A stretch of 64,000 nt of DNA from NCBI GenBank assembly GCA_037043015.1, contig CM073331.1, forward strand, positions 6,707,305 to 6,771,304. The letters are read 5' to 3'. A program made the translations under genes and the position numbers. Positions 683 through 61,261 of this stretch are shown one piece after another. How positions within the stretch are numbered: the first letter of the stretch is position 1; every line of letters begins with the position of its first letter. The notes below the pieces were generated by a model. The model was not told where the DNA came from and ran no database searches. It was given only the letters and a program-made list of their open reading frames with translations. This DNA comes from Bryum argenteum. Taxonomy: Eukaryota > Streptophyta > Bryopsida > Bryales > Bryaceae.

Positions 683-687
683 GAGTG
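683..687. repeat. Target-site duplication of element A, left copy
   Basis: GAGTG immediately precedes the left LTR. The same five bases follow the right LTR at 19431-19435. A 5-bp duplication is standard for Ty3/gypsy integrases and fixes the element boundaries. Confidence 0.9.
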
Positions 688-3600
688 TGTCGTAACGTGC
701 TCTTCCGATTCGTGCCCGGATAACCCTTTTTCGCGGTAAAAGAGGTTTCCCAAACAAGAACCCGAGTATTCGTTCCACGGAGATCCTGTGAAGTGCAAAC
801 ACAACAATTTCCACCAGTTAGCCAACCCGGATTTGTGCTATCCGGGAACTGTCCTCTCACCCCTGTGCCCTGTATCCTGTCCTGGAAAAGCTGCCCGGAC
901 AGGAGAGGGGAGGGAGTTTAGTTTTTGTGGTTTAGTTTAGCCTCTGTATTCACCTCAGAGGGATTTTCCCGGACTTAGATAAGTGGGGGGATTAGGCCAC
1001 TTCTCTCGTTGATTAACGTGACCGGAAAGGTCACCGAGACTCTCTCTCTCTCCTTACCCTGTTAGGAACTTCCCTTATACCTCCCTCTACGCCCGGACTA
1101 TAGATCCACACGCATGTCACAAAGTTCGGTATCCGGTTCTCCTATGGTCCGGTTATCTCAACTCACTACCCGGGTTAGTGGATTCCGGGTTACTGGACTG
1201 GGAGTGGTGCGACTGACCCGGAGTTCACCGCTATCACCTATACACCGACCTTCCTATCCGGACTTCAGCAATCCAGGGGGACTCAACCGAGCGCGGCCTC
1301 GGGAGTCGGTTAGGCGGCCGGAATCCCTTCCTGGCCGCCGTAATCCTGAATGCTGCACGGACAGGCTAAACCGGGCTCTAAGTGAGAGGTGCCGTTCGTT
1401 GGCCGCACTCCTCTCCTACCAGCTTCTCTACTCTCCTCACTCCTCTCCGTTCAAGGACGGAACCGCTACCTCTTGCCCGGACAGCAAGGGCCTCCTGGAC
1501 TTCGCAATAATCCTAGCACAGCATACAAGACAGGAAAGAGGAAAGGTTCCACAAACTCACCCCCTCACGTACACCCACACGCGCACACACATACAAGGAT
1601 GGAGAAAGGGGCGTTCTTGCAACTGCATTAGGGTACTGCAAAAGACCAAAAAAAAAGACCCCGAGGGGGTATCCTCCCCTCGTCTAAGTAGCAGCTCCTC
1701 CCTGGCTTCCCAGAAGAGGACAAAAGTTCCTTGCCAGGGAATCTTTCTAATCCCTACCCCTAGTCAGCCTAGCGCCGTCATTCTCCTATCTGCAATAAAA
1801 GCATACTAACCCTCGATCCGAGAAATCCGCCCCCAGTTGCCTTGGTCTTGGTCATTCTTCCCCATTCTGGCGGTTACAGCGCCTCGGCAGTCGTGGAGGT
1901 GCCGTCCCCCTGCACTTTCGGTCCGGGTTGGGAGGTAATCTCTTCTTCCTCCCCCTCCTGGCCAAGTGTTGGGTTAGCTTCCCCACCGTCCACGAATTCT
2001 GTATCTCCGGATGGGGCGGGGGCCGAGGTATCCGGGCATACCTCCCCAGTCTCCGGGACTTCCACCAGCTCCTCGGGGAAAAGGGGAGTAGCCTCCGCGG
2101 CGTGGGCTGTATTAGGAGGCCCCTCGGGATCTGGAGATCCGGAGAGGGGCGCTGCCTCCGGTTCTTGGAGAGGTTGGGGCGCCTCTACCTCCTGCCCGGG
2201 TGAAGGGAGGCCGGTTTTCCCTTCTTCCCCTGGTTGGATTGTGGCCTCCTGGTTGGGAGCAGGGCTCTCGTCCAGGGGGGCCACTATCCGGTCAGGTGGG
2301 ATTGGTGAGGAAGTCCTCCCCCGACCGGTGTCCTCCTCTATCCGGGTAGTCTCCTCCTCTATCCGGGGAGTCTCCTCCCCAGGGCGTGACACTCCCTTGG
2401 CCGCCTCTATCTCTTCCCGGTTACTCTCGGGTAGGGGTGGTAGGGTGCTCATCCCGATCGGGGCCTTCTCCGGACTGCGGATGGATAAAGGTAGTGGCTC
2501 CTCCATCGCTGCGGGGTCGGCGGACTCCTCTTCCTCCGCTATGGTCGCCTCAGCAATCTCGGGTACAACCCGGGTAGAAGGATTATCGTCTTCCTCCAAT
2601 GGGGGTGCCTCTCCCGGGAAAGCCCGGGTCATCTCACGGATGAGGTCTCTCATCTCCTGCAAGGCCCCTTCCATCCGCTCGGTGGCCTTCTTCATATAAG
2701 CCGCCATGCGAGTAGGGAGATCCGACCCGGATGCCTGGAACTGGGCATCGAATAGCTGAGATTTGAGCTGGGCTTCTCCTGGAGCATACAGGAGTCTCCG
2801 CAGGCCGAAAAGATGCTGTCGTGCATATCCTTGTTGTTTGGACAGTTCCTCTTCCAATCGCTTGATCTCCCGGTCCTGGCGTAGAATAATGAGGGACCCT
2901 TCATTGACCCTAGTCCGGGCTTCTGCAGCATCCCGTACTAACTCCCGGACCATGTCCGGGTACCGCTCCACCTGGTTGGTCCGGAGCGCTACAGCTACCC
3001 CCCGCAGCGCCTTGTGCATTTGAAGGTGCTCCTGTGTGCACATTTGTAATGCATAGGCGATAGGTTGGAGGGGGTCGTCCTCTGAAATCCGGAAGGGAGG
3101 TACGGGGAGGTTTGGATCATGCTCCGGCCGCTTTGGGGTGAAATCATCCCAACCAGATGATCGGGGTGCGGTGGATGGGACTGCCAACCCCTGTTCCCGG
3201 GTAGTGGGGAGGGGAGAGTGGTGGCCGGTCTCACCCTCGTCCTCCGACTCCGAATCCTCCTCCATTGCCTTCTTCCCCTTCCTTCTGGTGGACCTGTCCC
3301 CAGATGATGTAGCTCGTGGCGCGACCGGGATTGCCCGGACAACTGGTTCACGTGGTCCGGTCCGGTTGCCAGGAGAACTGGCAGGGGTCACTGTAGCATC
3401 TTCCCTGGGCCTGGTGAGTTTTCTCCGTACCCGGGTCGTCGGTGTCTCTCGGGGGATCTGCCTTCCTCTTTGCGGCGTATTTTGGCTCCCCCCACTCGAC
3501 TCCTCCTGTTGTGGTAGTATGCCCGGGTATCTCGACAGGGCTGTCAGCCAGGAGAAGAGCCTCAATGGGAACCTCGTCCACCGGTCCCTCTCTTACCGGG

Positions 3601-5520
3601 GTCCGTACCTCCGGAATGGGGTCCACTAATTGGGAAGCCCCCTCAGCCTCCGTATCCGACCCGGGTGGTGTGGTGCGGCCGCTTCCGGTTCCTTGGTGCC
3701 GAGGATCGGGCTCCACAAACCGGAGAACCCGTCCGGACTTCCTTCGACGCTTGAGCGGGAATCTCCTCCCCGTCACTATCTCGTTCCCTGCATGCAGCCG
3801 CAAGGGGGTGGGGAGTCAATCGTGGGGGCTAACGGGTTGCTGCGCTCTGCACCGGAGAGTCCTCATCTTCTCCGGTTAAAGGCTGGGATTATTGGTGGGT
3901 CACAGTCTTTGCCATGCTCCGGGTTGCTATCCTGTGAGTGGTGGCCGGTCGGGGTGGAACAACTCTCTCCGTCATGGGTATGGCTGCTCCTCCGGAAGCC
4001 GGTCCTGGTGTTCCTCCATCCCTTGGCTCGGGGGCAGTGGGTCCTGTCCTCCGTGGCCCCTGCGGCCCTGGTGGTGCTGGTGGCGGTGGTGGGGGAAGTG
4101 CTCCTACTCCGGGGGCAGGCACCCTGGGGAGGAGTCTAGCTGCAGCGGGGACCCCTGTCTCGGGATCCATTTCCCGGGAAACATATCTCTCCGGCCCTCC
4201 ATCGCATTCGGAGGAGTGTGACTTCTCCGGGTTGAGGCGGTCGTGAGTGCGCGTATAGGTGGTACACATAGGGAGCCATCGGGCAACCCTTCGCACTGGT
4301 AGTCTTCTTCGAAGCCCGGGCGATTACCTCCTCGAGAATGTGGCCCCATCCTACCTGTTTGCGGCCCCGGTAAGACTCCATGATGGCCTTCAGGAGTCTA
4401 TTCGAGACGAACTGGGGCTTCTCCGGGTTGAGAATCGGGGCCGGGAAACCCGGCGGCCCGTCGCTCCCGCGCATTTGCGCAGTCCTCCACCCGGTATCCG
4501 TCGTGCTCGTGTGCAGGGTTGTGAAACATTCCACCAAGGGAGGGGTCATTCCGCACCTGTATGTACCCCGTGGAGGAGTCCGGGAAGCCGTACGTTGCCC
4601 TCCAACACGCCTCCTGCCAGAAATGCGGCTTGGCCCGGACAGGGTTGTCTGCGAAGGTGGGTGGGTCTTGTCCGGACACGCGACCTCCTCGATGATCCCC
4701 GCGTCCTCCACGTTCCAAGGCACCCAAGACAATCCCGCGCATCCCATTCGAGTGAGGTCCTCGCACCAATCGAGCCCGGGCATCCTCCGCGATGGGAATG
4801 CCGGCTGGATGATTTTACACCGGCACGCGAAGCTCGTCCCCGGCCATCCTCCTGCCTCTCCTCTCCTGGCTATGGCGTGCCGGACTAACGCGTGGAGAGC
4901 TGCAGCGTGCGCGAATAGGGAGCGGCAGAGTCGGCGATGCGCACGAAACACGAGGGAGGAAAAAAAGGGGGGTAACGGCCGCTTTGCTCCGCTAAAGACA
5001 AAAAGGTAGAGTGGGGAGGTGGCCGTGCTTTTGGCGGCGCATCATTAATCTCGGCCTGTCAGGCCGGGACTGTCGGCGCCGCCGCCAGGGTTTTCCCCGC
5101 CCGACCCGTTCGTGAACCCGACCCGGCCGCTGCCTTCCCTGTCTTCGATACCCGGCCCGGCTGACCATACCCGGTTGGGGTATACCCGATTGGGGCAACC
5201 TTTTCCCGGGTAGGCGTAAACCCGCGAAGGGCCATTCCTGGTCATCCGGATCCGCAGCGGTCGACGGGATACGACTAGACAGGACCCTGGCTTAAGAGCA
5301 GGGGATACAAAGAAAAAGAAAAATCCAAAAAAAAGTAGTGCTACCCTACCCTGCCCACTAAGTCTAAGGATACTCCTGGGTGGGCAGGTTCCTGGCCGAG
5401 CTAACATTACCCGGACATTGCCCGGGTAGGCCAGGATATGGGCATTTATTTCTCCTAATTAGCTACTCCTAACCGCTATCCGGACTTACTTGGGCGAAAA
5501 TGAAAAAATGAGGTTTGACA
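688..5520 (-). repeat. 3' LTR of element A (about 4.83 kb)
   Basis: It matches 11614-13576 plus 16567-19430 almost throughout, starts and ends TG...CA, and lies directly against a polypurine tract. At 4833 bp it is several times longer than common plant LTRs. It holds an accessory reading frame of about 990 codons on the same strand as gag-pol. Positions 2645-2652 are the uninterrupted version of the site where the hAT element inserted in the other LTR. The part beyond the gene (688-1873, the 3' end of the LTR on the minus strand) has no convincing gene. Confidence 0.93.
1874..4844 (-). pseudogene. LTR-embedded accessory gene, left copy (frameshifted)
   Basis: This long gene lies wholly inside the LTR, about 680 bp downstream of the LTR start. 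Its function is unknown. The right LTR copy shows the start codon (Met-Ala-Gly-Asp). The order of regions is: a globular N-terminal domain with EDLTRMGCAGL, NPAHEHDGYRVEDC and VGWGHILEEVIARA; a proline-rich linker; basic and acidic stretches (RSTRRKGKKAMEEDSESEDE); a coiled coil (REIKRLEEELSKQQ); and an acidic Pro/Ser-rich tail ending at 1874. 1874-3565 is one open frame of 563 codons. Between about 3600 and 4800 small indels split the frame several times relative to the right copy. The N-terminal domain is shared with 47351-50952 and, more weakly, with 53847-55634. It resembles the putative plant transposon protein family. The acidic and basic tracts suggest a nuclear protein, which is inference. 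Confidence 0.75.
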
Positions 5521-5532
5521 TTACCCCTTTTT
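5521..5532 (-). promoter_or_regulatory. Polypurine tract of element A
   Basis: The minus strand reads AAAAAGGGGTAA directly before the 3' LTR start TGTCAAACC. This is the expected place and composition for the plus-strand primer. It lies only about 45 bp after the end of the pol frame, so no internal space is left for an accessory gene outside the LTR. Confidence 0.85.
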
Positions 5533-5577
5533 CATCTGTGAGCGTCCCCGCGAACACTGCGCCCCTTGTAACTCCGG

Positions 5578-8500
5578 TTACTCTGACCCGGATTGTGGGG
5601 GTTCGTCCTCCTCCGAGGTGACCTCCTCATCCGTTAACTCCTCAGGGTGGTACTTCTTCACCCTCGATCCATTCACACGGGTACCCATGATGTTACCCTG
5701 GAGATCTTCCAACTGGAGGGACCCGTTGGGGAACACTTGGGTTACCCGGTAAGGACCCATCCAGCGGGTGTGCAGCTTACCCGGGAAATCTTGATGGCGG
5801 CTGTCGTACAGGAGCACTAGCCCTCCCTCTCTGATTCCGTGGTCCCCTGGAAGCCTCTGGTCCTACTTTTCCTTTCGGTCTTCCTGCACCGCCCGGTTTC
5901 TCTCCATGCCTTCTGTTCGGCCCTCCTCCAAGGCGTCGATGGCTTGTAACCTCTCCGGTTTGCCGTCTCCCTCCTCTCCGAGCCTTGTAGCCATAACCCG
6001 GTGAGTCTCTACCGCAAGCTCCACTCCGTGAATGGCCTCCTGACCGAAGACCATAAAATATGGGGTCTTCCCGGTGGTTGTCTTCTCCGCCGTGTTGTAC
6101 GCGTGAACCGCGGAGGCAAGCTTCCTGTCCCAATCAGTCTTATGGGCGGACACCATCTTGTTTAACATTTTGCCGATGATGCCGTTTGAGCGCTCCGTCT
6201 GACCGTTGGCTTTGGGATTGTACGGAGTTGTCTTGCGGTGCCGGATCGCATACTTGGTGGTGATGTCCTCGATGACATCATTGATGAAGTGCGCTCCCCG
6301 GTCACTGACCAGTTCCAGGGGATGGCCGAACCTCATCATGATTTCCTCGAACAGGAATGACGCAGCTGTCCTGGCATCGTTCCCTCGAGTTGCCCGGGCT
6401 TCTACCCACTTCGTGGCGTAATCGGTTGCGAGTATGATGTAGCACTTCCGGTTTTTGGTAATGGGGGCGATTGGACCTACAAAGTCAATTCCCCATTTGA
6501 CAAAAGGGGCCAGGGGAAAAATCGGGGTCAGGGGCCAGTGGTTCCGGAAACTCGGTTGTCCTGTCCGCTGGCATTGGTCGCAGCGCTGGACGTAGTGCCG
6601 GACATCCCGGATTACGAAGGGCCACCAATACCCCGCACTCTTAATACGGTTAACCGTACTCATGGCGGCTAGGTGCCCTCCGGAATTTCCCGCGTGTAAG
6701 GCCTCCATCACCTGCCTCCGCTCTCCGGGTTCCAAACACCGGCGCAGCCTGTCATCGGCTCCCATCCGGAACAGGACTCCGTTGATCAGAGTGTATGGAG
6801 CCACACGGTGTTGGAAGACGCTCTTTTCTTCCCGGTTCATGCCCGCGGGGTAGCGGTGGGTCAGGAGGTACTCCCGGATCTCCTGGAATTCGGAAAGTAC
6901 CTCGCCTTCCACTTGCAGCACAGCAACTTCCGGCCTATCCTGGCTATCCGGGAATTCGTCGGGAAACAGGGAGGAAACGTCTTCCAGGGCCTGTTCACCT
7001 CGCATCCTGGACAAGTAATCGGCATTGGCATTTGCCCTCCCTGGCTTGACGACTACCTCGTAGGTAAACTCCTGTAACAGGAGTATCCACCGGGCTATCC
7101 GTCCAGAGAGGTCCGGCTTATTCACCAGGTACTTGAGCGAGTCATGATCCGTATGAAAGATCACCCGATAGCCGAGGAGGTAATGCCGGAACTTCTTGCA
7201 GGCATAGACTACCGCCAGGGCTTCTCGTTCAGTGGTGGTGTAGTTCCTTTCTGCTGAACTCATCTGTCGGCTGGCGTAGTAGATGGGCCTCTCCCGCTTA
7301 TGCTCATCCGGCTGCCACAGAATGGCTCCTAGGCACCACCCCGAGGCGTCGAGGGTGACATGAAATTCCCGGGTCCAGTCCGGTGGTGCCAGGATAGGTG
7401 CCCGGGTTAGCTGCTGCTTCAGTTCCTCGAAAGCTGATTGCCTCTCCGGTTTCCACAGGAAGGGCTCGTCCTTTTTCAGCAAGGCCGTTAATGGGGCAGC
7501 TTTCCTGGCGTACCCATCAATGAAGCGCCGGTAATATCCCACGCAGCCCAGGAATCCGCGAACCTCCTTAACCGTCCGCGGTGGTGCCAGTGTCAGGATA
7601 GCACTGACCTTGTCCGTATCTACCTGCAGTCCTCTCCGGCTCACCACGTGCCCGAGTAGCAACCCGGTCTCCATTCCGAAAAAGCATTTCCCGGGATGGA
7701 GTTTGAGGTTTGTTTCCCTACAGCGCTGGAAGGTTTTCCTCAAGTGCTCGAGGTGGCTCTCCCGCTTTCCGAACACTGCGAAATCATCAATGAATACTTC
7801 TAGGAAATGCCGAAGAAAGTCCTTGAAGATATCCATCATGAGCCGCTGGAAGGTGCCCGGGGCGTTACACAACCCGAACGGCATCCGGTTAAAAGCGTAG
7901 GTACCCCACTCCGTAGTGAAGGTGGTTTTGAGTTGGTCACTCTCCCGGATGGAGACCTGATTGTACCCGGAGAATCCGTCCAGGAAACTATACAGTTCCT
8001 GTCCGGCCACGTGATCCAGGATAATGTCGGTAAACGGGAGCGGGAAGTAATCCTTCTTAGTGGTGGCGTTGAGCTTGCGGAAGTCCTGGCAAACCCGGAT
8101 CTTCACCTTCCCGTCCGCCCCCGTCTTCTTTGGTACCACCACAATCGGGGATACCCACTCCGTGTTATTAACCGGGTAGATGAACCCGGCCTCCAGTAAC
8201 CGGTCAATCTCCTCCTTCACCATGAGGGAGTATTTCGGGTTAAGCCGGTACTGGCGCTGGCGAATCGGGCTAGCACCTTCGACTAAGTCGATTTGGTGCT
8301 CCCCTAGCTGTGGAGGAATTCCTCGGAGGTCTGTGGGCGCCCATGCGAACACATCGGCAAACCCGGACAGCAGGGAGCTGTACTCGCTCTTTTCCCGGGC
8401 AGTCAGGGTCTTTCCCAGGAAGAACTTCTTTCCGGGGCCTACTTCGATCTCCTCAAAATCCTTGGGCGATACGACGCCTTTAATGCGCTCAGGTTCGGCC

Positions 8501-9768
8501 TCTTCCGGGGTTATTCCCAAGTTTCCCCAGGGAATAACCCCCTCCCCGGTGAGTCGACAGGGTTGTCCAGAGGGGTCGGCGAGCTGCTTCCGTATCCACT
8601 TCTCGGATAGGGCTACGCACGATTCTCCCAGGGATCTGTCATCCATCTCCGGTTTTTCCTCAACCTCCTCATCTGCACCCAGTTCCCGTCCTTCTTCCGT
8701 CACGGAGTCCGGAAATGCGAAGTCCTGCTCTACCAACCCGGAGAATTCGCTCACCAGGTAGCTGGCCTGTGTAGTGGAGTTCTCCGTATCCGACCACTCC
8801 GTGGTGTAGCCGTCGGATTCGTGTGTTTCCCCTTCATGGGCGGAGTGCATCCAGGGGATGATGAGGGTCGGCCTCTTCCCAACCCGGAATTCCTTCTCTC
8901 CCCAGTCCACGATTACCCGGGCCATGTAGAGCCAGGGTCGGCCCAGTAGCATCCGGAAGGGTCGCCCGGTTGCTACCCGGATAATGACAAAGTTCAAGGG
9001 GTAGGTAACTCCCCCTATGATGGTGGGAACCCTGGAAAGCCTCCCTACCGGGGCTACCCGAGATTGGTCAGCCATGCGGAGGACCAACTGGGTTGTTTCC
9101 AGGGTAGTGTACCCGAGGTCGTAAGCCGTGTCTTCCAACATCAGGTTCACACCGGATCCGCCATCCACAGGTACATCGTGGATGATGCAGCCATCAACTT
9201 CGACCTGCAGTTCGGGCGCGCCGAAATCCTCCACCTGCGCGAAGTTCACCGCAACTGAGGGAAGCTTGTATCTCTTCTTCCGCCGTTGAATCCAGGCTTC
9301 CCGGACAGTCTTCTGATAATTGGCGTTATCGTGGAGAAGCTGCCCGATAGTCACATTGGCCTGCGTGTCCTTGATATCTTGCAGGATATCATACTCATCG
9401 ACCCGCATTTGGGGTCCGGGTTTGATCACGACAGGGGTGTCCTGGAAATGAACAACCCTGCGATCCGGATCTGCCCGGGTTGCGGCAAGGTCTGTCCTGA
9501 CCTCGTCGCTGATGTCTCGATCGAGTTTGGTGGATTCCACCCCTTTTTCTGCGTCTGCTAGGGGTGGTGCCGGTGGTTCTACCCGAGTAGGCTCTTTGTC
9601 TTCCTCTTCCTGCCCGGGTTCTTCATCTTCCCGGGCTTTCCGGTTCGCCTCGCGGATCGCCTTCTTCTGTCTCCTCGAGCCTGTGTTGCTCTTTTCCCGG
9701 GTGGAGCTACGCGTGGAGACCTTATTGACTGCGGCCTCCTGTTCGCCGGGTAGCTCCACCTCGCACCC
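5578..9768 (-). CDS. pol: Pol polyprotein of element A (PR-RT-RH-IN), one internal stop
   Basis: The frame follows gag in the same phase after a single TGA. Counting from 9759, visible domains are aspartic protease ([10 protein letters not shown], about residue 199), reverse transcriptase (SFLDGFSGYNQV; FIDD catalytic box at about 657-660), RNase H (HVTLDASGWCLGAIL, about 801-815) and integrase with an HHCC zinc finger (about 1023-1064), core (KWGIDFVGP) and the NGQTERSNG stretch. An in-frame TAG at 5863-5865 interrupts the frame after about 1298 codons. Reading continues in phase into the C-terminal GPY module (HTRWMGPYRV) and ends at 5578. The TAG looks like one nonsense change, perhaps from a Trp codon. 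No initiator ATG is evident, which fits expression as a Gag-Pol fusion. Confidence 0.93.
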
Positions 9769-11418
9769 TCATTTATCCGGATTTTCTATTCCGGCGGTGG
9801 AACCGTAGTTAAGGCCGGACTGAGAACGCGGAGGGGTCTGCACAGACTTGTAGATGACCTTCGGAGGGGGCTTTTTCGGGCAACCCTCAAGGTTATGTCC
9901 GTACTCATGGCAACCCTGGCAGGGTAGGTTTTTCGGGGCACCAGGTTCAACGTCGGGTACATCGCAGCCACTGGCGTAATGTCCTCTCCTCCCGCATCGA
10001 TAGCAGATGACGTAATCCAGGTAAGTGCCAGTGAGGGGCTGCCCGGATGGCTGTCCGGGTAGACTCCTTCCTGGGGCGGCTGGATACGTCCTTCCTCCTG
10101 AACGCGGGGTGACACCTCGGCCGCGCCCATATCCCGCATGAACCTGGTACAGGGTAACCACATCCTCCTCTTCCGGTTCCTCTTCCTCCTCAGCCAGCAC
10201 GTATCGGACCCCTGTCTGGGGGTCGGTCCACTTCGAGGACCTCCTCGTGGACGTATTGGGGCACTCCGTGGGGTTGTGTCCGTACTCCTTGCACTTGGAG
10301 CACCACACGTTAGCCCGCTGCGTCGGAGGATTTTTGCGGCCACTCTGGAGTTCGGCCATGTTCACTTTGATAGCTTCGAGCTCCGCCAGGACTTTCTTGA
10401 GGCCATCTTCCTTCTCAACCTTCACCTTAACCGTGGCGGAACTGGACTTCTTGGAACTCTTTGCCTTCTCTGGTTTGGCCTCCTCCTCGCTGTCCGAGCT
10501 ATCCGGGTCGTTCGAGTCCGGGTCATCGCTACCCGCGGAACTGTCCGAGTCGGTGTCCTTCTTTTTCTTACCCTTCTCCTTCTTCTTATCCTTCCCCTTC
10601 CTGCGACTACTACGGAGAGCTTGAGCGGAGTCCTCGTAATCCAGGGCAGCATCCATAGCTTCCCGGAGTGTCTCCGGTTTGCTTCTCCGGATCTGGAAGG
10701 ACATATCCTCCGGTAGCCCGCCCACGTACCACTGGACCGCCACCATCGGAGCGATGTCGAAGGCCACCTTGTTCATGAGGGCTTTCACCCTCTGCCCGTA
10801 CTTCCGAACGGACTCATACTCGCGCTTCCGGACTTTCCCCAGCTGCATCAGGGCCCGCGCCTCTCCTCCGGCTTCCCGGAAAGCATGAAGGAAGGCTATC
10901 CTCAGCTGATCCCAGTTAGCCTTCACATCCGCGGGTACATCATTGTACCACTTCAACGCTTCCCCTTTTAGCAATCCGGAAAACACACGGAGTCTGGACT
11001 CCGGATCTTCCAGGTTAGCATCAGCGGTGGCCACGAACTCTTCGACCCAATCATCCACGTCTTTGCCACCATCACCCGCGAAGCGGCTGTACTTCAACCG
11101 GGTGAGTGGTGCGCGACGCAACGGAAGGACAGGGTTAGGGTCCATGGGTCCGGGGTTGGCTCGGCCCGGACTGGGCGGTCCTTCGCTTCCCGGAGGGGAG
11201 TTCGGTGTGTCGCTCTCGGATGGGGGTGCTGGTACTGGAATTACCCCTACCGCAACCGGGGCGACTACCTCCTCAGGAGGGGATGCGTAATGGATCTCCT
11301 CCTCTTCGTAAGCAAATTCGCGAGCTTGTGCGAGCTGCTCGATCTCGGCTGTAGCTCTTCTCCTGGCGGCCCGGGTAACTCGACTTCCACTTGGCTCACT
11401 CGTCTGCCCTCGAGTCAT
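9769..11418 (-). CDS. gag: Gag of element A
   Basis: The product of about 549 residues starts MTRGQTSEPSG at the first ATG after the primer site. The order is a low-complexity N-terminus, a retrotransposon gag core (DDWVEEFVATADANLE, LKGEALKWYNDV, WDQLRIAFLHAF), a highly charged Lys/Asp/Ser linker and three CCHC zinc knuckles (CSKCKEYGHNPTEC, CYRCGRRGHYASGC, CQGCHEYGHNLEGC). Gag forms the particle and binds the RNA genome. The frame ends in TGA at 9769-9771 and pol continues in the same phase without a shift. A phase-1 or phase-2 overlap for frameshifting is absent, so pol expression would need stop readthrough. Confidence 0.93.
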   Translation of the reverse strand: MTRGQTSEPSGSRVTRAARRRATAEIEQLAQAREFAYEEEEIHYASPPEEVVAPVAVGVIPVPAPPSESDTPNSPPGSEGPPSPGRANPGPMDPNPVLPLRRAPLTRLKYSRFAGDGGKDVDDWVEEFVATADANLEDPESRLRVFSGLLKGEALKWYNDVPADVKANWDQLRIAFLHAFREAGGEARALMQLGKVRKREYESVRKYGQRVKALMNKVAFDIAPMVAVQWYVGGLPEDMSFQIRRSKPETLREAMDAALDYEDSAQALRSSRRKGKDKKKEKGKKKKDTDSDSSAGSDDPDSNDPDSSDSEEEAKPEKAKSSKKSSSATVKVKVEKEDGLKKVLAELEAIKVNMAELQSGRKNPPTQRANVWCSKCKEYGHNPTECPNTSTRRSSKWTDPQTGVRYVLAEEEEEPEEEDVVTLYQVHAGYGRGRGVTPRSGGRTYPAAPGRSLPGQPSGQPLTGTYLDYVICYRCGRRGHYASGCDVPDVEPGAPKNLPCQGCHEYGHNLEGCPKKPPPKVIYKSVQTPPRSQSGLNYGSTAGIENPDK

Positions 11419-11585
11419 GAAGCAGCACACCGGGTATACCTCCGGCGGCTTCTAGACTGGTGGTTGGCTCGCACTTGCAACTCCTACCTGCCAGACGTGG
11501 TGAGTGAGTTTCGATCTCGTCACCAGAACCTCCAGCGCGAATCTCCTTCTCTCCTGGCAGAGATGTCGATCTTGCAGCTTTAGGA

Positions 11586-11603
11586 TCCCCGGCAGCGGCG
11601 CCA
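11586..11603 (-). promoter_or_regulatory. Primer binding site of element A, tRNA-Asp type
   Basis: The plus strand reads tccccggcagcggcgcca, which matches the 3' end of plant tRNA-Asp(GUC) at 17 of 18 positions including CCA. The primer site on the element strand is therefore TGGCGCCGCTGCCGGGGA, ten bases inside the 5' LTR. tRNA-Asp priming is known for Tat/Athila-type elements. Confidence 0.85.
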
Positions 11604-13576
11604 AAAGTAATCGTGTCGTAACGTGCTCTTCCGATTTGTGCCCGGATAACCCTTTTTCGCGGTAAAAGAGGTTTCCCAAACAAGAACCCGAGTATTTGTT
11701 CCACGGAGATCCTGTGAAGTGCAAACACAACAATTTCCACCAGTTAGCCAACCCGGATTTGTGCTATCCGGGAACTGTCCTCTCACCCCTGTGCCCTGTA
11801 TCCTGTCCTGGAAAAGCTGCCCGGACAGGAGAGGGGAGGGAGTTTAGTTTTTGTGGTTTAGTTTAGCCTCTGTATTCACCTCAGAGGGATTTTCCCGGAC
11901 TTAGATAAGTGGGGGGATTAGGCCACTTCTCTCGTTGATTAACGTGACCGGAAAGGTCACCGAGACTCTCTCTCTCTCCTTACCCTGTTAGGAACTTCCC
12001 TTATACCTCCCTCTACGCCCGGACTATAGATCCACACGCATGTCACAAAGTTCGGTATCCGGTTCTCCTATGGTCCGGTTATCTCAACTCACTACCCGGG
12101 TTAGTGGATTCCGGGTTACTGGACTGGGAGTGGTGCGACTGACCCGGAGTTCACCGCTATCACCTATACACCGACCTTCCTATCCGGACTTCAGCAATCC
12201 AGGGGGACTCAACCGAGCGCGGCCTCGGGAGTCGGTTAGGCGGCCGGAATCCCTTCCTGGCCGCCGTAATCCTGAATGCTGCACGGACAAGCTAAACGGG
12301 CTCTAAGTGAGAGGTGCCGTTCGTTGGCCGCACTCCTCTCCTACCAGCCTTCTCTACTCTCCTCACTCCTCTCCGTTCAAGGACGGAACCGCTACCTCTT
12401 GCCCGGACAAAGAAGGGCCTCCTGGACTTCGCAATAATCCTAGCACAAAGATACAAGACAGAAAGAGGAAAGGTTCCACAAACTCACCCCCTCACGTACA
12501 CCCACACGCGCACACACATACAAGGATGGAGAAAGGGGCGTTCTTGCAATCGCATTAGGTACCGCAAAAAAAAAAAAAAGACCCCGAGGGGGTATCCTCC
12601 CCTCGTCTCTAAGTAGCGACTCCTCCCGGCTTCCCGAGAAGAGGACAAAAGTTCCTTGCCGGGGAATCTTTCTAATCCCTACCCCTAGTCGCCCTAGCGC
12701 CGTCATTCTCCTATCTGCAATAAAAGCATACTAACCCTCGATCCGAGAAATCCGCCCCCAGTTGCCTTGGTCTTGGTCATTCTTCCCCATTCTGGCGGTT
12801 ACAGCGCCTCGGCAGTCGTGGAGGTGCCGTCCCCCTGCACTTTCGGTCCGGGTTGGGAGGTAATCTCTTCTTCCTCCCCCTCCTGGCCAAGTGTTGGGTT
12901 AGCTTCCCACCGTCCACGAGTCTCATCTCTCCGGATGGGGCGGGGGCCGAGGTATCCGGGCATACCTCCCCAGTCTCCGGGACTTCCACCAGCTCCTCGG
13001 GGAAAAGGGGAGTAGCCTCCGCGGCGTGGGCTGTATTAGGAGGCCCCTCGGGATCTGGAGATCCGGAGAGGGGCGCTGCCTCCGGTTCTTGGAGAGGTTG
13101 GGGCGCCTCTACCTCCTGCCCGGGTGAAGGGAGGCCGGTTTTCCCTTCTTCCCCTGGTTGGATTGTGGCCTCCTGGTTGGGAGCAGGGCTCTCGTCCAGG
13201 GGGGCCACTATCCGGTCAGGTGGGATTGGTGAGGAAGTCCTCCCCCGACCGGTGTCCTCCTCTATCCGGGTAGTCTCCTCCTCTATCCGGGGAGTCTCCT
13301 CCCCAGGGCGTGACACTCCCTTGGCCGCCTCTATCTCTTCCCGGTTACTCTCGGGTAGGGGTGGTAGGGTGCTCATCCCGATCGGGGCCTTCTCCGGACT
13401 GCGGATGGATAAAGGTAGTGGCTCCTCCATCGCTGCGGGGTCGGCGGACTCCTCTTCCTCCGCTATGGTCGCCTCAGCAATCTCGGGTACAACCCGGGTA
13501 GAAGGATTATCGTCTTCCTCCAATGGGGGTGCCTCTCCCGGGAAAGCCCGGGTCATCTCACGGATGAGGTCTCTCA

Positions 13577-16102
13577 CAGGGATGTCACAGCGTCCGGACG
13601 TCCGGACGTCCGCAGGGGGTTATGGGAGCGTCCGTGACTTAGAGATTTTGGACTATTTACCTAAGGTAAAAGGGGCGACCGGTCTTTGGGCGGGGCGACC
13701 GGTCCTTGGCCTGGGCGACCGGTCTTTGGCCCGGGCGACCGGTCCTTGGCCGGGGCGACCGGTCTTTGGCCCGGGCGACCGGTTTTTGGCCCAGGCGACT
13801 GGTCCGCCGACCAGCCCAACCCGGGGCGACCGGTCGGTGTCTTGCGCTCCTCTCTTCCCCTCTCACTCACCAACACTCCCTCATCTCTCCACTTCTCCCT
13901 TCTTCTTCCTCCTCTTGCTTGCATTTAAGAATTGTCTATTTTTAGGTACCTGACATTGTACCTACAATCTAAATCAGGGCATTAACCCACATGCCGATTT
14001 TGTCAGGGGAATGTCGGGAAGATCTTCTTTTCATAGAAGGGAATGTTTTACACAAAAGATCTTATGGGCTTGGACACACATGAAAAATAGAACTTATTAT
14101 AAATAAACCCTCATTGTTCAGATGAATCTTAACTATCCATGAATCACTTGGAATTCTTTAGGGGTACAATGTCATGCTTTGATAGAATTTGCAATATATT
14201 TACATTGACTTATGATAATGAAAAATATTATAGTTACTAACCATTTACGGATCTAAGTATTTAAGCAAATTTTATTTGAATCCAAATGGGTCGTTGTTTA
14301 TTTAACCCCTAAAGGCTAGGGGGGGGGTTTGAAGGAAAAATAAATGTGTTAAGAAATGTGAGTTTTCTAACTCTTGTAAACTTTCTTCCCAAAGACAATA
14401 TAAAAACCTTAATTCTAAGATTAAATTGTTGTAGGTGAAAACTTGAAATCCTCATAACAATTAATAATTCTCTTGTAATAGATTAAAGACACCTAAACTT
14501 TCAATAGCAAAATAAAATTCTCATTTCTATTCTTAGTACTTATTTATTTGTATGGTTTCCTTAAGTTTTATCTTACATGATAAAGGCCAATACTTATCTA
14601 TGAAGATACTATTAGTCTCCTTTTATAATAAGTTATTCAATATTAAGCAAACCTTGTCATGTTTGTGATTAAAGGGGTTGGTGTGAAAGATTCATGATTC
14701 CAAACTAGGTTTTGTAATGTAGATGAGGTTTTCAACCCATCTTACATCTCGGAGGTAAAAAATAAGTCCAACAAGAATCCTTTTTAAATCAGATACATCT
14801 TATCAAAATTTGGAATAGAGTACAAAATGGTTGATTGGGCCTTTAGTAGTTGAGCGTTAGAGTGAATATCCAATCATGTACTATATTGAAAGGCTATTAG
14901 CATCATATAAGTATATAAATATGTGAAGGAAAAAGACATATAACATAAAACTTACAATACAAATTCATGCAACCCAAATTTAGAAGAACAATACTACAAA
15001 GTATTATGTGCTAATATTTGTCTTTCAAGTGTATGTGTGAGTATGAAGATTATATTTCTATAAGACTCTCCTAAACATTTAACAAGTTACGTAGTGGTAA
15101 TGTGTAAATATAGATTTTTCATTTAATTGATCTTGGTAAATGTTCATAACTCCTGAATAAATATGAGTCATGTCCACGTTTATGGCGTATGTTATTTTTT
15201 ATTTTTGTAGAAAGTGATGTATCTTCAATATCTTATAATAGCAATTCATAATACTACATGATCAAATATACAATGATATATTATTTTAAGATGCGATTAG
15301 TTGATATTGACCCCATCTGATTTATATGGCAATAAAATTTGTATTGAATAAAAATAATCTTTGTGGAAGCGTTTTCTTATCCTCAAGTAAAGATTTTTTA
15401 TTTAATCTTATTTGACCCTTATGATGCTATGTGTTTCTGGCAAATGACACTAAGAACTTACACCCCCAAAATACCAAGTGCCCTTCACAGTGAATTAAGA
15501 CATTAGGCTTGTTCCTAAAGTTTGCAATTTGGAAATTAAAGAAAAATACGTAATTTAAACTAAAAAACACATGAACATCATCCTATTTTCTCTTTTAAGT
15601 TGTTAAACATCAACATGCCATAAGTAGTACAAAGTAAGTAACATCTTCCGGACCATGATAATAAGATTAAATGAATCATCAATCAATTCGCAAAAGTAAC
15701 TTAAGTATGGTTATAATTTATAGATAAAATAAAGAGATCTTAATCCCTAGATATCCTTGATGCGAAATTGCCTAAATTCTCCATGCTTATAAAGCCCCAT
15801 TTGAAACAATGTTTAGAAGATCCAACCGTAGGATCGTAAAGTTCACTTGAGTTTTTAGTCACTTGTAAAATTTAAACCGTTGATTCTTTTCCATTAGTGA
15901 GATCGTAATGCTCAAAGCAAGGAGAATCTTATTTGGGCGGGAACCCCAAATAGTGTAATCTGGATCTTGAAAAACTTTAGGGAGGGAGTTGTTAAGAAAT
16001 TCAAAATGGTTGTTGGAATAAATTAGAATAGGGTTAGGGTTAAGAGGAGTGGCCGCCATCCTTAGCTCCCCACCAAGGCGGCGGACGCCCACGCCGTCCG
16101 GG

Positions 16103-16139
<37 letters not shown>

Positions 16140-16558
16140 TCGTCCGAATCGGTTACTCCGACCGGATTCTAAATTTAGATTTTTTTTTTTTTTTTTTTTT
16201 TTTTTTCCTTAAATTCGGTCGGGCCGTCCGACCGTCGATCGACGACCGTCGTCCACCACCGTCCGACCGGTCCCACCACCGACCGTCGGTCGACCGTTAT
16301 CGATCTGACGGTTGTGGATCTCCGAATCAAATCTCATGGTCACCACGACCTTCGGTCGCCTCGACCGGGCGCCGGTCGGAGCGAATTTTCTCGGTCGCTC
16401 TAAAGAAGATCAGATTTGAACGGCTTAGATGCGAGCTCCAAGAAGATCTAATGGTTGAAATTTTTACTGTTGTCGTAGTAATTCCATTTTACCCCCCCGG
16501 ACGGACGGACGGACGTCCGACCAAAAAAACTTAAAAGACGTCCATATTGACATCCCTG
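13577..16558. mobile_element. Non-autonomous hAT-type DNA transposon
   Basis: The element has perfect 11-bp terminal inverted repeats CAGGGATGTCA...TGACATCCCTG and an 8-bp target duplication GTCTCTCA (13569-13576 and 16559-16566). Both are hAT hallmarks. The matching empty site is present once in the sister LTR at 2645-2652. Inside the ends are GGACGTCCG-type palindromes and CGACCGGT-rich subterminal repeats. The centre (about 13930-16020) is AT-rich. No transposase frame is present, so it must be mobilised in trans. Near the right end an A-tract (about 16109-16138) and a T-tract (about 16178-16206) could pair as a hairpin. Confidence 0.92.
13673..13837. repeat. 20-bp subterminal tandem repeat of the hAT element
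   Basis: GGCGACC recurs exactly every 20 bp (ending at 13680, 13700, 13720, 13740, 13760 and 13780, and as gcgact at 13800). The unit is close to GGGCGACCGGTCTTTGGCCC. Related CGACCG/CGGTCG words are dense near the other end (about 16210-16400). Subterminal repeats of this kind usually bind hAT transposase. Confidence 0.85.
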
Positions 16559-19430
16559 GTCTCTCATCTCCTGCAAGGCCCCTTCCATCCGCTCGGTGGC
16601 CTTCTTCATATAAGCCGCCATGCGAGTAGGGAGATCCGACCCGGATGCCTGGAACTGGGCATCGAATAGCTGAGATTTGAGCTGGGCTTCTCCTGGAGCA
16701 TACAGGAGTCTCCGCAGGCCGAAAAGATGCTGTCGTGCATATCCTTGTTGTTTGGACAGTTCCTCTTCCAATCGCTTGATCTCCCGGTCCTGGCGTAGAA
16801 TAATGAGGGACCCTTCATTGACCCTAGTCCGGGCTTCTGCAGCATCCCGTACTAACTCCCGGACCATGTCCGGGTACCGCTCCACCTGGTTGGTCCGGAG
16901 CGCTACAGCTACCCCCCGCAGCGCCTTGTGCATTTGAAGGTGCTCCTGTGTGCACATTTGTAATGCATAGGCGATAGGTTGGAGGGGGTCGTCCTCTGAA
17001 ATCCGGAAGGGAGGTACGGGGAGGTTTGGATCATGCTCCGGCCGCTTTGGGGTGAAATCATCCCAACCAGATGATCGGGGTGCGGTGGATGGGACTGCCA
17101 ACCCCTGTTCCCGGGTAGTGGGGAGGGGAGAGTGGTGGCCGGTCTCACCCTCGTCCTCCGACTCCGAATCCTCCTCCATTGCCTTCTTCCCCTTCCTTCT
17201 GGTGGACCTGTCCCCAGATGATGTAGCTCGTGGCGCGACCGGGATTGCCCGGACAACTGGTTCACGTGGTCCGGTCCGGTTGCCAGGAGAACTGGCAGAG
17301 GTCACTGTAGCATCTTCCCTGGGCCTGGTGAGTTTTCTCCGTACCCGGGGTCGAGGGCTGTCTGCGGGGGGATCTGCCTTCCTCTTTGCGGCGTATTTTG
17401 GCTCCCCCCACTCGACTCCTCCTGTTGTGGTAGTATGCCCGGGTATCTCGACAGGGCTGTCAGCCAGGAGAAGAGCCTCAATGGGAACCTCGTCCACCGG
17501 TCCCTCTCTTACCGGGGTCCGTACCTCCGGAATGGGGTCCACTAATTGGGAAGCCCCCTCAGCCTCCGTATCCCCGGGTCGTGGTGCGGCCGCTGCTTCC
17601 GGTTCCCTTGGTGCCGAGGGATCGGGCTCCACAAACCGGAGAACCCGTCCGGACTTCCTTCGACGCAGAGCAGGAATCTCCTCCCCGTCACTATCGTTCC
17701 CCTGTACAGGCTGCAAGGGGGGTGGGGAGTCAATCGTGGGGGCTAACGGGGTTGCTCTGGCTACCGGAGAGTCCTCATCTTCTCCGGTTAAGGCTGGGAT
17801 TGGCTGGCTGGGTCCTGGTGCTGCCATGCTCCGGGTTGCTATCCTGTGAGTGGTGGCCGGTCGGGGTGGAACAACTCTCTCCGTCATGGGTATGGCTGCT
17901 CCTCCGGAAGCCGGTCCTGGTGTTCCTCCATCCCTTGGCTCGGGGGCAGTGGGTCCTGTCCTCCGTGGCCCCTGCGGCCCTGGTGGTGCTGGTGGCGGTG
18001 GTGGGGGAAGTGCTCCTACTCCGGGGGCAGGCACCCTGGGGAGGAGTCTAGCTGCAGCGGGGACCCCTGTCTCGGGGATCTGTTCTCCGGGAAACATATC
18101 TCTCCGGCCCTCCATCAGCATTCGGAGGAGTGTGACTTCTCCCGGGTTGAGGCAGTCGTAGTGCGCGTATAGGTGGTACACATAGGGAGCCATCGGGCAA
18201 CCCTTCGCACTGGTAGTCTTCTTCGAAGCCCGGGCGATTACCTCCTCGAGAATGTGGCCCCATCCTACCTGTTTGCGGCCCCGGTAAGACTCCATGATGG
18301 CCTTCAGGAGTCTATTCGAGACGAATCAGGGCTTCTCCGGGTTGAGAATCGGGGCCGGGGAACCGAGCGGCCGTCGCTCCCGCGCATTTGCGCGATCCTC
18401 CACCGGTATCCGTCGTGCTCGTGTGCGGGGTTGTGAAACATTCCACCAAGGGAGGGGTCATTCCGCACTGTATGTACCCCGTGGAGGAGTCCGGGAAGCC
18501 GTGACGTTGCCCTCCAACACGCCTCCCGCGTAAATGCGGCTTGGCCCGGACGGGGTTTCTGCGAAGGTGGGTGGGTCTTGTCCGGACACGGCCTCCTCGA
18601 TGATCCCCGCGTCCTCCACGTTCCAAGGCACCCAAGATAATCCCGCGCATCCCATTCGAGTGAGGTCCGCACCAATCGAGCCGGGCATCCTCCGCGATGG
18701 GAATGCCACTTGGATGATTTTACACCGGCACGCGAAGCTGTCCCCGGCCATCCTCCCGTACCTCTCTCTCTCTCCCGGCTATGGCGTGCCGGACTAACGC
18801 GCGTGGAGAGGCTGCAGCGTGCGCGAATAGAGGAGCGGCGAGAGTCGGCGATGCGCGAAAACACGAGGAGGAAAAAAGGGGGGTAACGCCGCTTTGCTCC
18901 GCTAAAGACAAAAAGGCAGAGTGGGGAGGTGGCCGTGCTTTTGGCGGCGCATCATTAATCTCGGCTGTCAGCCGGGATCTGCTGTCAGCGCGCCGCTGTG
19001 GTTTTCCCGCCCGACCCGTTCGCGAACCCGACCCGGCCCGCCGCTTTCCTGTCTTTCGATACCCGCCCGGCCGACCATACCCGGTTGGGGTATACCCGAC
19101 AGGGCAACCTTTTCCCGGGTAGGCGTAAACCCGCTGAAGGGCCATTCCTGGTCATCCGGATCCGCAGCGGTCGACGGGATACGACTAGACAGGACCCTGG
19201 CTTAAGAGCAGGGGATACAAAGAAAAAGAAAAATCCAAAAAAAAGTAGTGCTACCCTACCCTGCCCACTAAGTCTAAGGATACTCCTGGGTGGGCAGGGT
19301 CCTGGCCGAGCTAACATTACCCGGACATTGCCCGGGTAGGCCAGGATATGGGCATTTATTTCTCCTAATTAGCTACTCCTAACCGCTATCCGGACTTACT
19401 TGGGCGAAAATGAAAAAATGAGGTTTGACA

Positions 19431-19435
19431 GAGTG
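19431..19435. repeat. Target-site duplication of element A, right copy
   Basis: GAGTG follows the right LTR and equals 683-687. Confidence 0.9.
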
Positions 19436-19915
19436 GACATGGTGGATTGGGGAGGAAACATGGCAGCAGATCGGGGAGCGGACGAGGAGCAGACATGGGA
19501 GCGAACGGGGTGGATAGGGTAGACAGAGCGGACAAGGGAGCAGATGGGGGAGTGGAGGGGGAGCGGATGGGGGAGCAGACGGGGGAGCGCATGGGAAGCG
19601 GACGAGGGAGCGCATGGGGAGCGGACGGGGGAGCGCATGGGGAGCGGACGGAGGAGCGGATGGGGGAGTGGACGGGAGAGCAGATGGAAGAGCGGATGGG
19701 GGAATAGACGGGGGAATGGATGGGAGAGTAGACAAGGGAGTAGACGGGGGAGCAGATGGAAGAGCGGATGGGGGAATAGACGGGGGAATGGATGGGAGAG
19801 TAGACAAGGGAGTAGACGGGGGAGCAGACGGAGGAGTGGATGGAGGAGTAGATGGAGGAGTAAACGGGGGAGCGGACAGGGGAGTAGATGGAGGAGCGAA
19901 CTAGGTGAATGAGCG
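19431..19915. repeat. GA-rich minisatellite
   Basis: Purine-rich tandem units such as gggggagcggacgggggagc and gatggaggagtagatggagg run to about 19915, mostly in steps of 15-18 bp. Element A inserted at its left edge. The long proline/serine frames on the minus strand are a by-product of this composition. Confidence 0.85.
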
Positions 19916-21123
19916 AGCGAAAGGGGGTAGCGGATGGCAAGCGGACGGGGGGAGCGAACAAGGAGTGGATGGGACAAACAAAGTGGGGGAGTTGTATAGT
20001 AATTTACTTACCTGATTTCACCACTTTGTGATAACATGTCTCTACACATGGCACAATTTTCTGGAAGTGCATCCAATGTGTCTAGGAAAAGGTTACCGTT
20101 AAATGTCATTCACATGGTAATTTTACCTGGCCGTTACGGTAATGTCAGAATCTGTCACCACGTCATGCTATGATCGTATCCTGACGTCGTTACGTTGTGA
20201 CGAAAAAGGTCACCGTCATGACACAATAGACAACTCTGATAAAAACCTGTACTCACACTAAGTGTACACCACTCTCATGAATCAAATAGTTTGTATGCCT
20301 GCCAGAATGTACTCACTGCTGCCACTGCACGTAATCATAGACGGCAGGTGGTAAGCATAATAACATGTTCATCAATGACAAAAATGTTGAGTGTGACTCA
20401 AGAGAGGATCTGGTGGATACATGTGTCCTCGGAGGCGTTGTCACTGTCTTTGACAGTTTGAAGAGCATCAATTCCAACTTAGATGTTGGAGGTGGTGGTA
20501 AGTCTTCATAACGCTCGTGTTGAAGCATGTTGAGAAGAAGAAATTATGAAAGAGATGGGAGCATGTTCGAAATAGAAAATGATGAAGCTTCTAAGGTAAT
20601 ATGATCTACTGGGCGTGTAGAGCCCTTCTCCCAGTTATCAACGGGCTTAATTCGTGTCTAATGTACATGGTAGAAAGCCTGTAAAAAATATCTACATCCT
20701 CTCTACCTCGTGGCAGTCACTATCGCCAATACATGGGGCCAATAGTCCGATGATGGCATCGTCATATCACCTTCAGAGTGTAGACGAGCAATCCTCATAT
20801 CACTTATAGACTTTAACTACTCAGGACTACGAGGCAATCGCTGATTTCATTGCGGGAGTCGGTTCGCATCCGTTCAGCCACATTTTGCATTCCATCTGTC
20901 CATCCATATCTGGTCATGAATTGGTTAAAGGTAAAATGACTTCGAATCTCAGATCGCTTTGTTTTGGAACACAAATAGCTGACCAGTCTTCCATAGTCAA
21001 CCATTGCAAGAAGTTTACAATTGATACACTACAGGATGGGTTGGTGTTCTGATTCAATTAGGTATGCACCAATCAACACCTGATTATTTGTTTTCTTCGT
21101 ACAGCTGGTATTGCCCTTGTTTT
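19916..21123. other. Anonymous spacer, no gene recognised
   Basis: Short minus-strand frames (20313-20528 and 20813-21004, about 60-70 codons) have ordinary amino-acid composition but no recognisable domain or splice context. They could be remnants of an unknown gene. Confidence 0.4.
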
Positions 21124-43154: not shown

Positions 43155-44040
43155 TATGTCTGTATTACATCCATTTTACATGCATTTATTACATCCATTT
43201 TACAATCTAGTTACATCTAGTTAAAATTACATCCATTTCACATGCATTTATATGAAATTACATCCATTTTACTTGCATTCTCATGCAATTACACCCATTT
43301 TCCATACATTTGTATGGAATTATACCCAATTTATGTGCATTTACATCAAGTTACATCCATTTCACATGCATTTGCATGGAGTTACATTCATTTTACATGC
43401 TTTCATGAAAATACACCCATATTACAAACATTCACATCTAGTTACACCCATTTTATATGCATTCACATGACAACTGAATACATCCATTTCACATGCGTTT
43501 CCATGGAGTTTCATTCATTTGACGTGCATTCACATCCAGTTACACCCGTTTAACATGCATTCACATCTAGTTACACCCATTTAACATGCATTCATATCTA
43601 GTTATACCCACTTTACATGCATTCAAATCTAGTCACATCCATTTTACATGCATTTACATCCAATTAAACCTATTGTAAGTACATTCACATTCAGTTACAC
43701 CCATTTTACATGCATTCACATCCAATTATATCCACTTTATGTACATTCACATTCAGTTACACCCATTTTATATACATTCACATCCGATTATACCCAATTT
43801 ACATGCATTCACATCCAGTTATATCCACTTTATGTACATTCACATTGAGTTATACCCATTTTATGTGGTTCAGGGTTCAGTTTCACCCATTTCACATGCA
43901 TTCACATCTAGTTATACCCATTTTATATTCATTCAAGTCCAGTTACACCCATTGTATTTACATTCACATCCAATTACATCTATTGTACATGCATTCACAT
44001 CTACTTACACCCATTGTATGTACATTCACATCCTCTTCAT
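43155..44040. repeat. 30/31-bp minisatellite
   Basis: Nearly 0.9 kb of tandem units close to cattcacatccagttacacc followed by cattttacatg, with period about 30-31 bp and roughly 28 diverged copies. The open frames across it are a consequence of the repeat. Confidence 0.9.
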
Positions 44041-53494: not shown

Positions 53495-53507
53495 TTTTGC
53501 CCTCCCT
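53495..53507 (-). promoter_or_regulatory. Polypurine tract of element B
   Basis: The minus strand reads AGGGAGGGCAAAA directly before the LTR start TGTTACCGC. Confidence 0.75.
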
Positions 53508-61258: not shown

Positions 61259-61261
61259 AAA

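What the first reader, a model, noticed from the sequence alone, without database searches (positions are those of the whole stretch)
688..5520. A complete accessory gene lies inside a 4.8-kb LTR
The LTR limits are fixed by TG...CA ends, polypurine tract, primer site and GAGTG target duplications, so the ~990-codon frame at 1874-4844 (repeated at 12777-18751) is certainly LTR-internal. Each insertion therefore carries two copies, each the first gene after an LTR start. Known plant retrotransposon extra ORFs sit between pol and the LTR or before gag; an ORF of this size in the LTR would be exceptional. That it was ever translated is inferred from its homologs.
Basis: partly seen in the sequence, partly recalled or inferred. 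Interest (0 to 1): 0.88.

Follow-up and report, generated by a model that had tools for sequence, protein, structure and literature searches.

The report
Protein gene inside a retrotransposon LTR
A family of plant jumping genes carries an extra protein gene of about 1,000 codons inside its long end-repeats, a part normally thought to be non-coding, and comparison of intact copies shows that natural selection has preserved that protein.

Summary
The finding holds, and is stronger for the family than for the window copy. The element (minus strand) is a Ty3/gypsy retrotransposon: LTRs 688-5520 and 11614-19430, GAGTG duplications, tRNA-Asp primer site, gag and pol between. The LTR frame is real but decayed here: frameshifted in both LTRs, and cut by a 2,982-bp insertion in the 5' LTR. 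Elsewhere in the same genome 11 of 48 fetched loci have an uninterrupted frame of 977-1078 codons from a shared Met. For six of these I have both LTR ends; all six are solo LTRs with perfect 5-bp duplications, so the gene lies wholly inside the LTR. dN/dS is below 1 in 55 of 55 pairs of the 11 frames (median 0.21; N-terminal domain 0.08, helical region 0.07; pol yardstick 0.06-0.07). No Pfam or PDB sequence relative was found; a bipartite nuclear signal is conserved and no membrane segment was found. A gene-less derivative has transposed, so the gene is not needed in cis. A TATAAG box near the LTR's far end (35 of 35 LTRs) suggests that the gene lies in U3, like MMTV sag, an unrelated protein. 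My searches of an open-access library found no plant precedent. Expression and function were not tested.

The parts
683..687 (.). Target-site duplication GAGTG, left
   Evidence: Identical to 19431-19435
688..5520 (-). 3' LTR, 4,833 bp, complete
   Evidence: Direct repeat of 11614-19430; starts TGTCAAACCT and ends CGTTACGACA in element sense
1074..1079 (-). TATAAG, candidate core promoter of the genomic RNA, 392 nt before the LTR end
   Evidence: At -388 to -394 in 35 of 35 LTRs compared and nowhere else in them; function inferred
1874..4844 (-). LTR-internal gene, left copy, frameshifted
   Evidence: tblastn of the intact L049 protein; longest stop-free piece 572 codons
5445..5450 (-). AATAAA motif about 71 nt into the LTR; might belong to a promoter or poly(A) signal in the LTR head
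   Evidence: Present in the first 120 nt of 25 of 35 LTRs; function speculative
5521..5536 (-). Polypurine tract next to the 3' LTR (GATGAAAAAGGGGTAA in element sense)
   Evidence: Sequence; the same end precedes L021, L023, L033, L037, L044
5863..9759 (-). pol frame, 1,298 aa: RT, RNase H, integrase
   Evidence: Pfam
9769..11430 (-). gag frame, 553 aa
   Evidence: Pfam Retrotrans_gag, E 1.5e-08
11584..11603 (-). Primer-binding site, tRNA-Asp(GTC)
   Evidence: 12 genomic sites match the tRNA 3' end pattern; ARAGORN calls tRNA-Asp at both loci fetched
11614..19430 (-). 5' LTR, split by an insertion
   Evidence: Direct repeat of 688-5520
12777..18751 (-). LTR-internal gene, right copy, frameshifted and split by the insertion
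   Evidence: tblastn of the L049 protein
13577..16558 (.). 2,982-bp insertion inside the gene (8-bp flanks GTCTCTCA, inverted ends CAGGGATGTC); hAT-like by recalled criteria
   Evidence: Sequence
19431..19435 (.). Target-site duplication GAGTG, right
   Evidence: Identical to 683-687

Best explanation
[quoted passage not shown] Shown: the gene lies wholly within the LTR, it is intact in many copies, it has evolved under strong purifying selection, and it is dispensable in cis because LTRs without it have transposed. Inferred: genomic RNA starts just downstream of TATAAG about 390 nt before the LTR end, so the gene lies in U3 and, in genomic RNA, sits between the polypurine tract and the 3' end (likely, about 0.65). 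It is translated from an LTR-head promoter or from a spliced subgenomic RNA (undecided). The product has a conserved N-terminal domain, a Pro-rich linker with a bipartite nuclear signal, a helical, probably coiled-coil region and an acidic tail, and most likely works in trans in the nucleus, on expression or silencing of the element or on its pre-integration complex (about 0.5). Because the gene is in the LTR, each insertion carries two copies and each solo LTR keeps one.
For: 11 of 48 fetched loci have uninterrupted frames of 977-1078 codons from a shared Met; 9 of the 11 reach the common C-terminal end. 6 of 6 of those with both LTR ends in hand are solo LTRs with perfect 5-bp duplications. 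dN/dS below 1 in 55 of 55 pairs, median 0.208; N-terminal domain 0.079, linker 0.229, helical region 0.068, tail 0.408; pol 0.06-0.07. 76 of 92 gaps in the frame are multiples of three, against 36 of 181 in the LTR head and 21 of 159 in the tail (sums). TATAAG in 35 of 35 LTRs. A bipartite basic motif in 6 of 6 proteins, no membrane segment. Window piece of the middle region predicted all-helical. An element with gene-less LTRs and intact TSD.
Against: No transcript or protein data. 37 of 48 fetched loci are broken, shortened, incomplete or without the shared start, and both window copies are broken. The second and third sets of loci were picked for apparent openness. The LTR copies were chosen by their last 299 nt, which inflates conservation there; only L047-L049 escape that bias. 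One antisense frame is fairly open in the intact copies (3-10 stops, up to 815 codons). Gene-less LTRs that transposed could also mean that the protein is merely helpful. Nuclear, trans-acting function rests on a motif and on analogy.
Confidence: 0.7

Rival explanations
1. The gene lies in R/U5: genomic RNA starts in the LTR head, upstream of the frame, so the LTR gene is the first cistron of the full-length RNA, ahead of gag.
For: AATAAA-like motif within the first 120 nt of 25 of 35 LTRs; first ~180 nt are fairly conserved; the Met has a G at -3 and +4 in 4 of 6 copies checked.
Against: TATAAG in 35 of 35 LTRs lies about 390 nt before the LTR end; every short LTR keeps the last ~1.1 kb. gag would then need reinitiation behind a ~3-kb frame (inference).
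Confidence: 0.25
2. The frame is a captured host gene or gene fragment carried as a passenger without a role in the element.
For: No relative in Pfam or among PDB sequences; some LTRs transposed without it.
Against: dN/dS below 1 in 55 of 55 pairs with dS up to 1.26. Selection over that divergence among element copies needs function during the element's own cycle; the window's two copies show near-neutral change after insertion (0.81 overall, 1.04 in the helical region).
Confidence: 0.05
3. The protein is an env-like protein displaced into the LTR.
For: Sense orientation and position after pol in the DNA, as for plant env-like ORFs (PMC7264820).
Against: No membrane-like segment: the highest 19-residue hydropathy is 0.80-1.01 in 6 of 6 proteins; a conserved bipartite basic motif instead.
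Confidence: 0.05
4. The 5-kb TG...CA units with 5-bp duplications are mobile in their own right, rather than solo LTRs left by recombination.
For: 24 of 34 LTRs with both ends are single units with perfect duplications, and all six intact-frame copies with known ends are of this kind.
Against: The same units are LTRs of gag-pol elements in the window and next to primer site or PPT in L014, L019, L023, L034, L021, L033, L037, L044. Solo LTRs commonly outnumber full elements (recalled).
Confidence: 0.05

Closest known systems
MMTV sag (LTR-encoded accessory gene of MMTV-like betaretroviruses)
   Same: Most of the gene lies in U3 of the LTR; preserved mainly in solo LTRs; overall omega 0.289 in that study (PMC4667437, passages).
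   Different: Unrelated host, element and protein as far as tested; here a far longer frame, a basic nuclear motif and no membrane segment; U3 location here is inferred.
Plant extra ORFs between pol and 3' LTR or upstream of gag (Grande, RIRE2, Retand, Athila env-like)
   Same: Accessory gene besides gag-pol in a Ty3/gypsy element; nuclear location reported for Grande GENE23 (PMC7264820, parts 1 and 2 of 3).
   Different: Those lie in the internal region, the cited Grande, RIRE2 and Retand ones in antisense; this one lies inside the LTR in sense. No Transposase_28 match.
CRM centromeric retrotransposons, group A
   Same: Coding sequence inside an LTR of a plant Ty3/gypsy element (PMC3059260, one passage).
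   Different: There the pol polyprotein runs on into the 3' LTR; here pol stops at 5863, outside the LTR, and the LTR gene is separate with its own Met.
Second Ty3/gypsy element of the window (52712-62043)
   Same: Extra coding region with a predicted coiled coil after integrase, same host.
   Different: Fused to pol and outside its 784-bp LTRs; no detectable sequence relation.

Membership tests
Ty3/gypsy LTR retrotransposon | gag, then RT, RNase H, integrase in this order | tested here: met
   Pfam on 9769-11430 and 5863-9759
Ty3/gypsy LTR retrotransposon | TG...CA LTRs, tRNA primer site, polypurine tract, 5-bp duplication | tested here: met
Named plant clade (Athila, Tat, Phygy and so on) | RT/RH/INT phylogeny | not tested
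   No reference RT set at hand; no chromodomain was reported by Pfam on pol, which alone does not place it
LTR-encoded accessory gene, MMTV sag type | Frame wholly or mostly inside the LTR | tested here: met
   6 of 6 intact frames with known ends lie in solo LTRs with TSD
LTR-encoded accessory gene, MMTV sag type | Location in U3 | tested here: inconclusive
   TATAAG in 35 of 35 LTRs at about -390; no RNA ends
LTR-encoded accessory gene, MMTV sag type | Membrane-anchored superantigen (recalled) | tested here: not met
   No membrane-like segment in 6 of 6 proteins
Plant eORF between pol and 3' LTR | Frame in the internal region | tested here: not met
   Frame lies between the LTR ends
CRM type, polyprotein into the LTR | pol frame continues into the LTR | tested here: not met
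   pol stops at 5863; the LTR starts at 5520
Env-like | Transmembrane segment | tested here: not met
   Highest 19-residue hydropathy 0.80-1.01
Transposase_28 or another named accessory domain | Pfam match above cut-off | tested here: not met
   Three near-complete frames, only sub-threshold hits at E 0.89-4.4

The most novel reading that the evidence does not exclude
The LTR is a self-contained gene (promoter, frame, terminator) for a trans-acting nuclear factor. Solo LTRs, usually treated as dead footprints, remain a dispersed set of helper genes that support gene-less derivatives of the same family; solo-LTR formation, which normally ends an element's coding capacity, here preserves it.
Probability: 0.35. 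Interest if true: 0.9.

Novelty: new variant of a known kind. Interest (0 to 1): 0.76.

Why it matters
LTRs are treated as regulatory, non-coding sequence. A large, selected protein gene wholly inside a plant LTR means that annotation which masks LTRs, or looks for extra ORFs only in internal regions, would miss such genes; that solo LTRs can keep coding capacity; and that the sag arrangement of one retrovirus group has an independent parallel in plant retrotransposons. It makes a question testable: does a solo LTR supply a protein in trans?

Tried and rejected
Relatives of the LTR protein in the large protein database could not be sought (switched off), so its spread outside this genome is unknown. 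Pfam (E up to 5) on three near-complete frames and PDB sequences with the N-terminal domain: nothing above cut-off. BLASTP and profile comparison with the C-terminal extension of the second element: no relation, so my idea that such an extension was moved into the LTR has no sequence support. Splicing as the origin of the short LTRs: sequence overlaps of 5-23 nt at the junctions in 10 of 12 (none resolved in L043 and L044) fit template switching or recombination between short repeats better. Viral-contig scan with gag: no relative. ARAGORN on the window: no tRNA. The host was not identified; a DYW-type PPR gene at 34161-36875 indicates a land plant (recalled); a paper search aimed at a guess did not help.

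Rows left out: the final selection statistics use the 11 uninterrupted frames only. They leave out L050 (one stop: 682 and 343 codons), L055 (open for 1,016 codons but without the shared start) and all partial frames. The earlier table holds stretches that are out of frame at their ends (L018, L028, L042, both window copies) and is used only for the window pair. Open_frame values can run through stops (L050: 1,026 listed; L054: 1,016 listed, 985 found), so only frames that I translated are counted. An earlier count said that all LTRs end CGTTACGACA; the recount gives 31 of 35.
Full report
Observation. The element lies on the minus strand. Its 3' LTR is 688-5520 and its 5' LTR 11614-19430, two direct repeats. 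GAGTG flanks the whole at 683-687 and 19431-19435. gag (11430-9769) and pol (9759-5863) lie between; Pfam recognises gag, RT, RNase H and integrase. The primer site at 11584-11603 fits the 3' end of tRNA-Asp(GTC): 12 genomic sites match the 21-base tRNA end, and ARAGORN calls tRNA-Asp there in both loci that I fetched. The right LTR is split by a 2,982-bp insertion at 13577-16558 with 8-bp flanks GTCTCTCA and inverted ends CAGGGATGTC.

The frame in the window. The longest stop-free pieces are 572 codons (left) and 625 (right). The two window copies differ with omega 0.81 over 336 codons (out-of-frame ends included) and 1.04 in the helical region (4 synonymous, 14 non-synonymous changes), about as expected for decay after insertion. 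So the gene is complete in extent but not open.

The family. A search with the last 299 nt of the LTR scored 40 of 295 candidates, and all 40 matched; two are the window's own LTRs and I fetched the other 38. A protein search scored 43 of 3,341 candidates and gave 72 matches; from these I fetched 4 and 6 more loci, 48 in all. Both LTR ends were located in 34 of the first 42. All 34, and the window's left LTR, start TGTCAAACCT; 31 of these 35 end exactly CGTTACGACA, the other four differ slightly. 24 of 34 are single LTRs with identical 5-bp flanks; 3 are followed by the primer site, 4 preceded by the polypurine end, 1 has both; 2 have neither, with flanks differing at one base. 22 of 34 exceed 4.7 kb; 12 of 34 are 1.65-3.2 kb.

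Intact frames. 11 of 48 loci have an uninterrupted frame of 977-1078 codons from a shared Met: L009, L013, L017 (3 of 38 in the set chosen by the LTR end), L047, L048, L049 (3 of 4) and L051-L054, L056 (5 of 6); the last two sets were picked for apparent openness. 9 of 11 reach the common C-terminal end; L009 and L054 stop earlier. L009, L013, L017, L047, L048 and L049, the six with both LTR ends in hand, are all single LTRs with perfect duplications, which fixes the gene inside the LTR independently of any pol-containing copy. L014, L019 and L023, which precede a primer site, show that 5-kb LTRs of this kind also flank internal regions. Within the intact frames the other five reading frames hold 3-35 stops each; one antisense frame is fairly open (3-10 stops, up to 815 codons).

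Selection. For the 11 frames omega (NG86) is below 1 in 55 of 55 pairs: whole frame 0.155-0.615, median 0.208; N-terminal domain median 0.079; linker 0.229; helical region 0.068; tail 0.408; dS 0.04-1.26. The largest one-sided Fisher p is 0.024 for the whole frame; for single regions of close pairs it rises to 0.34. Pol gives 0.06-0.07 in 3 of 3 comparisons. In 15 pairwise DNA alignments of six copies, 76 of 92 gaps in the frame are multiples of three, against 36 of 181 in the LTR head and 21 of 159 in the LTR tail (sums over the rows). The frame is a protein gene that stayed functional through the divergence of these subfamilies.

The protein. The N-terminal ~230 residues are nearly invariant among six close copies. 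The linker is 18-19% Pro and holds a bipartite basic motif in 6 of 6 proteins; no stretch reaches membrane hydropathy. A 171-residue window piece that follows is predicted helical, with one 57-residue helix, from a single sequence (mean pLDDT 67.9, pTM 0.41). Pfam gave only sub-threshold hits (E 0.89-4.4) for three near-complete frames, and PDB sequences none for the N-terminal domain.

Where in the LTR. TATAAG lies 388-394 nt before the LTR end in 35 of 35 LTRs and nowhere else in them. 32 of the 35 were chosen through their LTR end (31 by the search, plus the window's own), so part of this is choice of copies; but the box lies outside the 299-nt query, and the three copies chosen by protein (L047-L049) have it too. 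The last 500 nt show 94-99% majority letters over 32 LTRs. I infer that genomic RNA starts near -360 and that the gene lies in U3. AATAAA occurs within the first 120 nt of 25 of 35 LTRs and might belong to a head promoter or a poly(A) signal; this is speculation.

Derivatives. The 12 short LTRs lack part or all of the frame; sequence overlaps of 5-23 nt mark the junctions in 10 of 12. In 3 of 12 (L022, L033, L034) tblastn finds nothing of the L013 frame, though L022 keeps a 162-nt DNA piece from it. L015, L021 and L025 share a junction and are 98.7-98.8% identical; L024 and L030 share one at 93.7%. L034 and L033 are the two LTRs of one element (96.5% identical, TSD GAATG, primer site and polypurine end in place) with an open piece of 782 codons, 687 of which match pol. 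Gene-less forms have transposed, so the gene is not needed in cis; whether copies elsewhere help is inference.

Mosaic LTRs. Head, frame and tail give discordant identities: L017/L048 0.87, 0.75, 0.92; L009/L013 0.79, 0.93, 0.90. Recombination between subfamilies is likely.

Literature. PMC7264820 (parts 1 and 2 of 3), PMC6317226 (passages, sections 9 and 20) and PMC11963269 (passages) describe extra ORFs upstream or downstream of gag-pol; what I read mentions none inside an LTR. PMC3059260 (one passage) reports CRM polyproteins that extend into the 3' LTR. PMC4667437 (passages) describes LTR-encoded sag, mostly surviving in solo LTRs. PMC10787394 and PMC11117352 (passages) hold no LTR gene in what I saw. 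Full-text searches for such a case in plants listed none that I recognised; the library is open-access and lacks most subscription papers.

Verdict. Observation partly confirmed (the window copies are broken); interpretation supported and strengthened. An LTR-encoded accessory gene is known from MMTV-like viruses; in a plant retrotransposon, with this unrelated protein, it appears new.

Noticed in passing
13577-16558: 2,982-bp insertion in the 5' LTR with 8-bp flanks GTCTCTCA and CAGGGATGTC inverted ends; hAT-like by recalled criteria, AT-rich inside with GC-rich ends.
   Followed up: partly
52712-62043: Second, young Ty3/gypsy element (784-bp LTRs, 99.5% identical) whose pol frame of 2,235 aa runs on for some 850 residues after integrase, with a predicted coiled coil.
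   Followed up: partly
L015, L021, L022, L024, L025, L026, L030, L033, L034, L037, L043, L044: Short LTRs of the same family with different internal deletions, some junctions shared by several insertions: the family spawns gene-less derivatives.
   Followed up: partly
688-5520 versus 11614-19430: The two window LTRs differ by many 1-2-nt indels (70 gap columns and 64 mismatches in 2,910 aligned columns) concentrated in the part with the N-terminal half of the gene; decay or assembly error in very GC-rich sequence was not resolved.
   Followed up: partly
34161-36875: Intact 904-codon PPR gene with a DYW deaminase domain.
   Followed up: no
19436-19990: Degenerate GGGGGAGCGGATG-type repeats begin right at the insertion site of the element.
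   Followed up: no
43164-44033 and 48088-48668: Two arrays of self-similar tandem repeats (72-75% and 87-90% between units).
   Followed up: no
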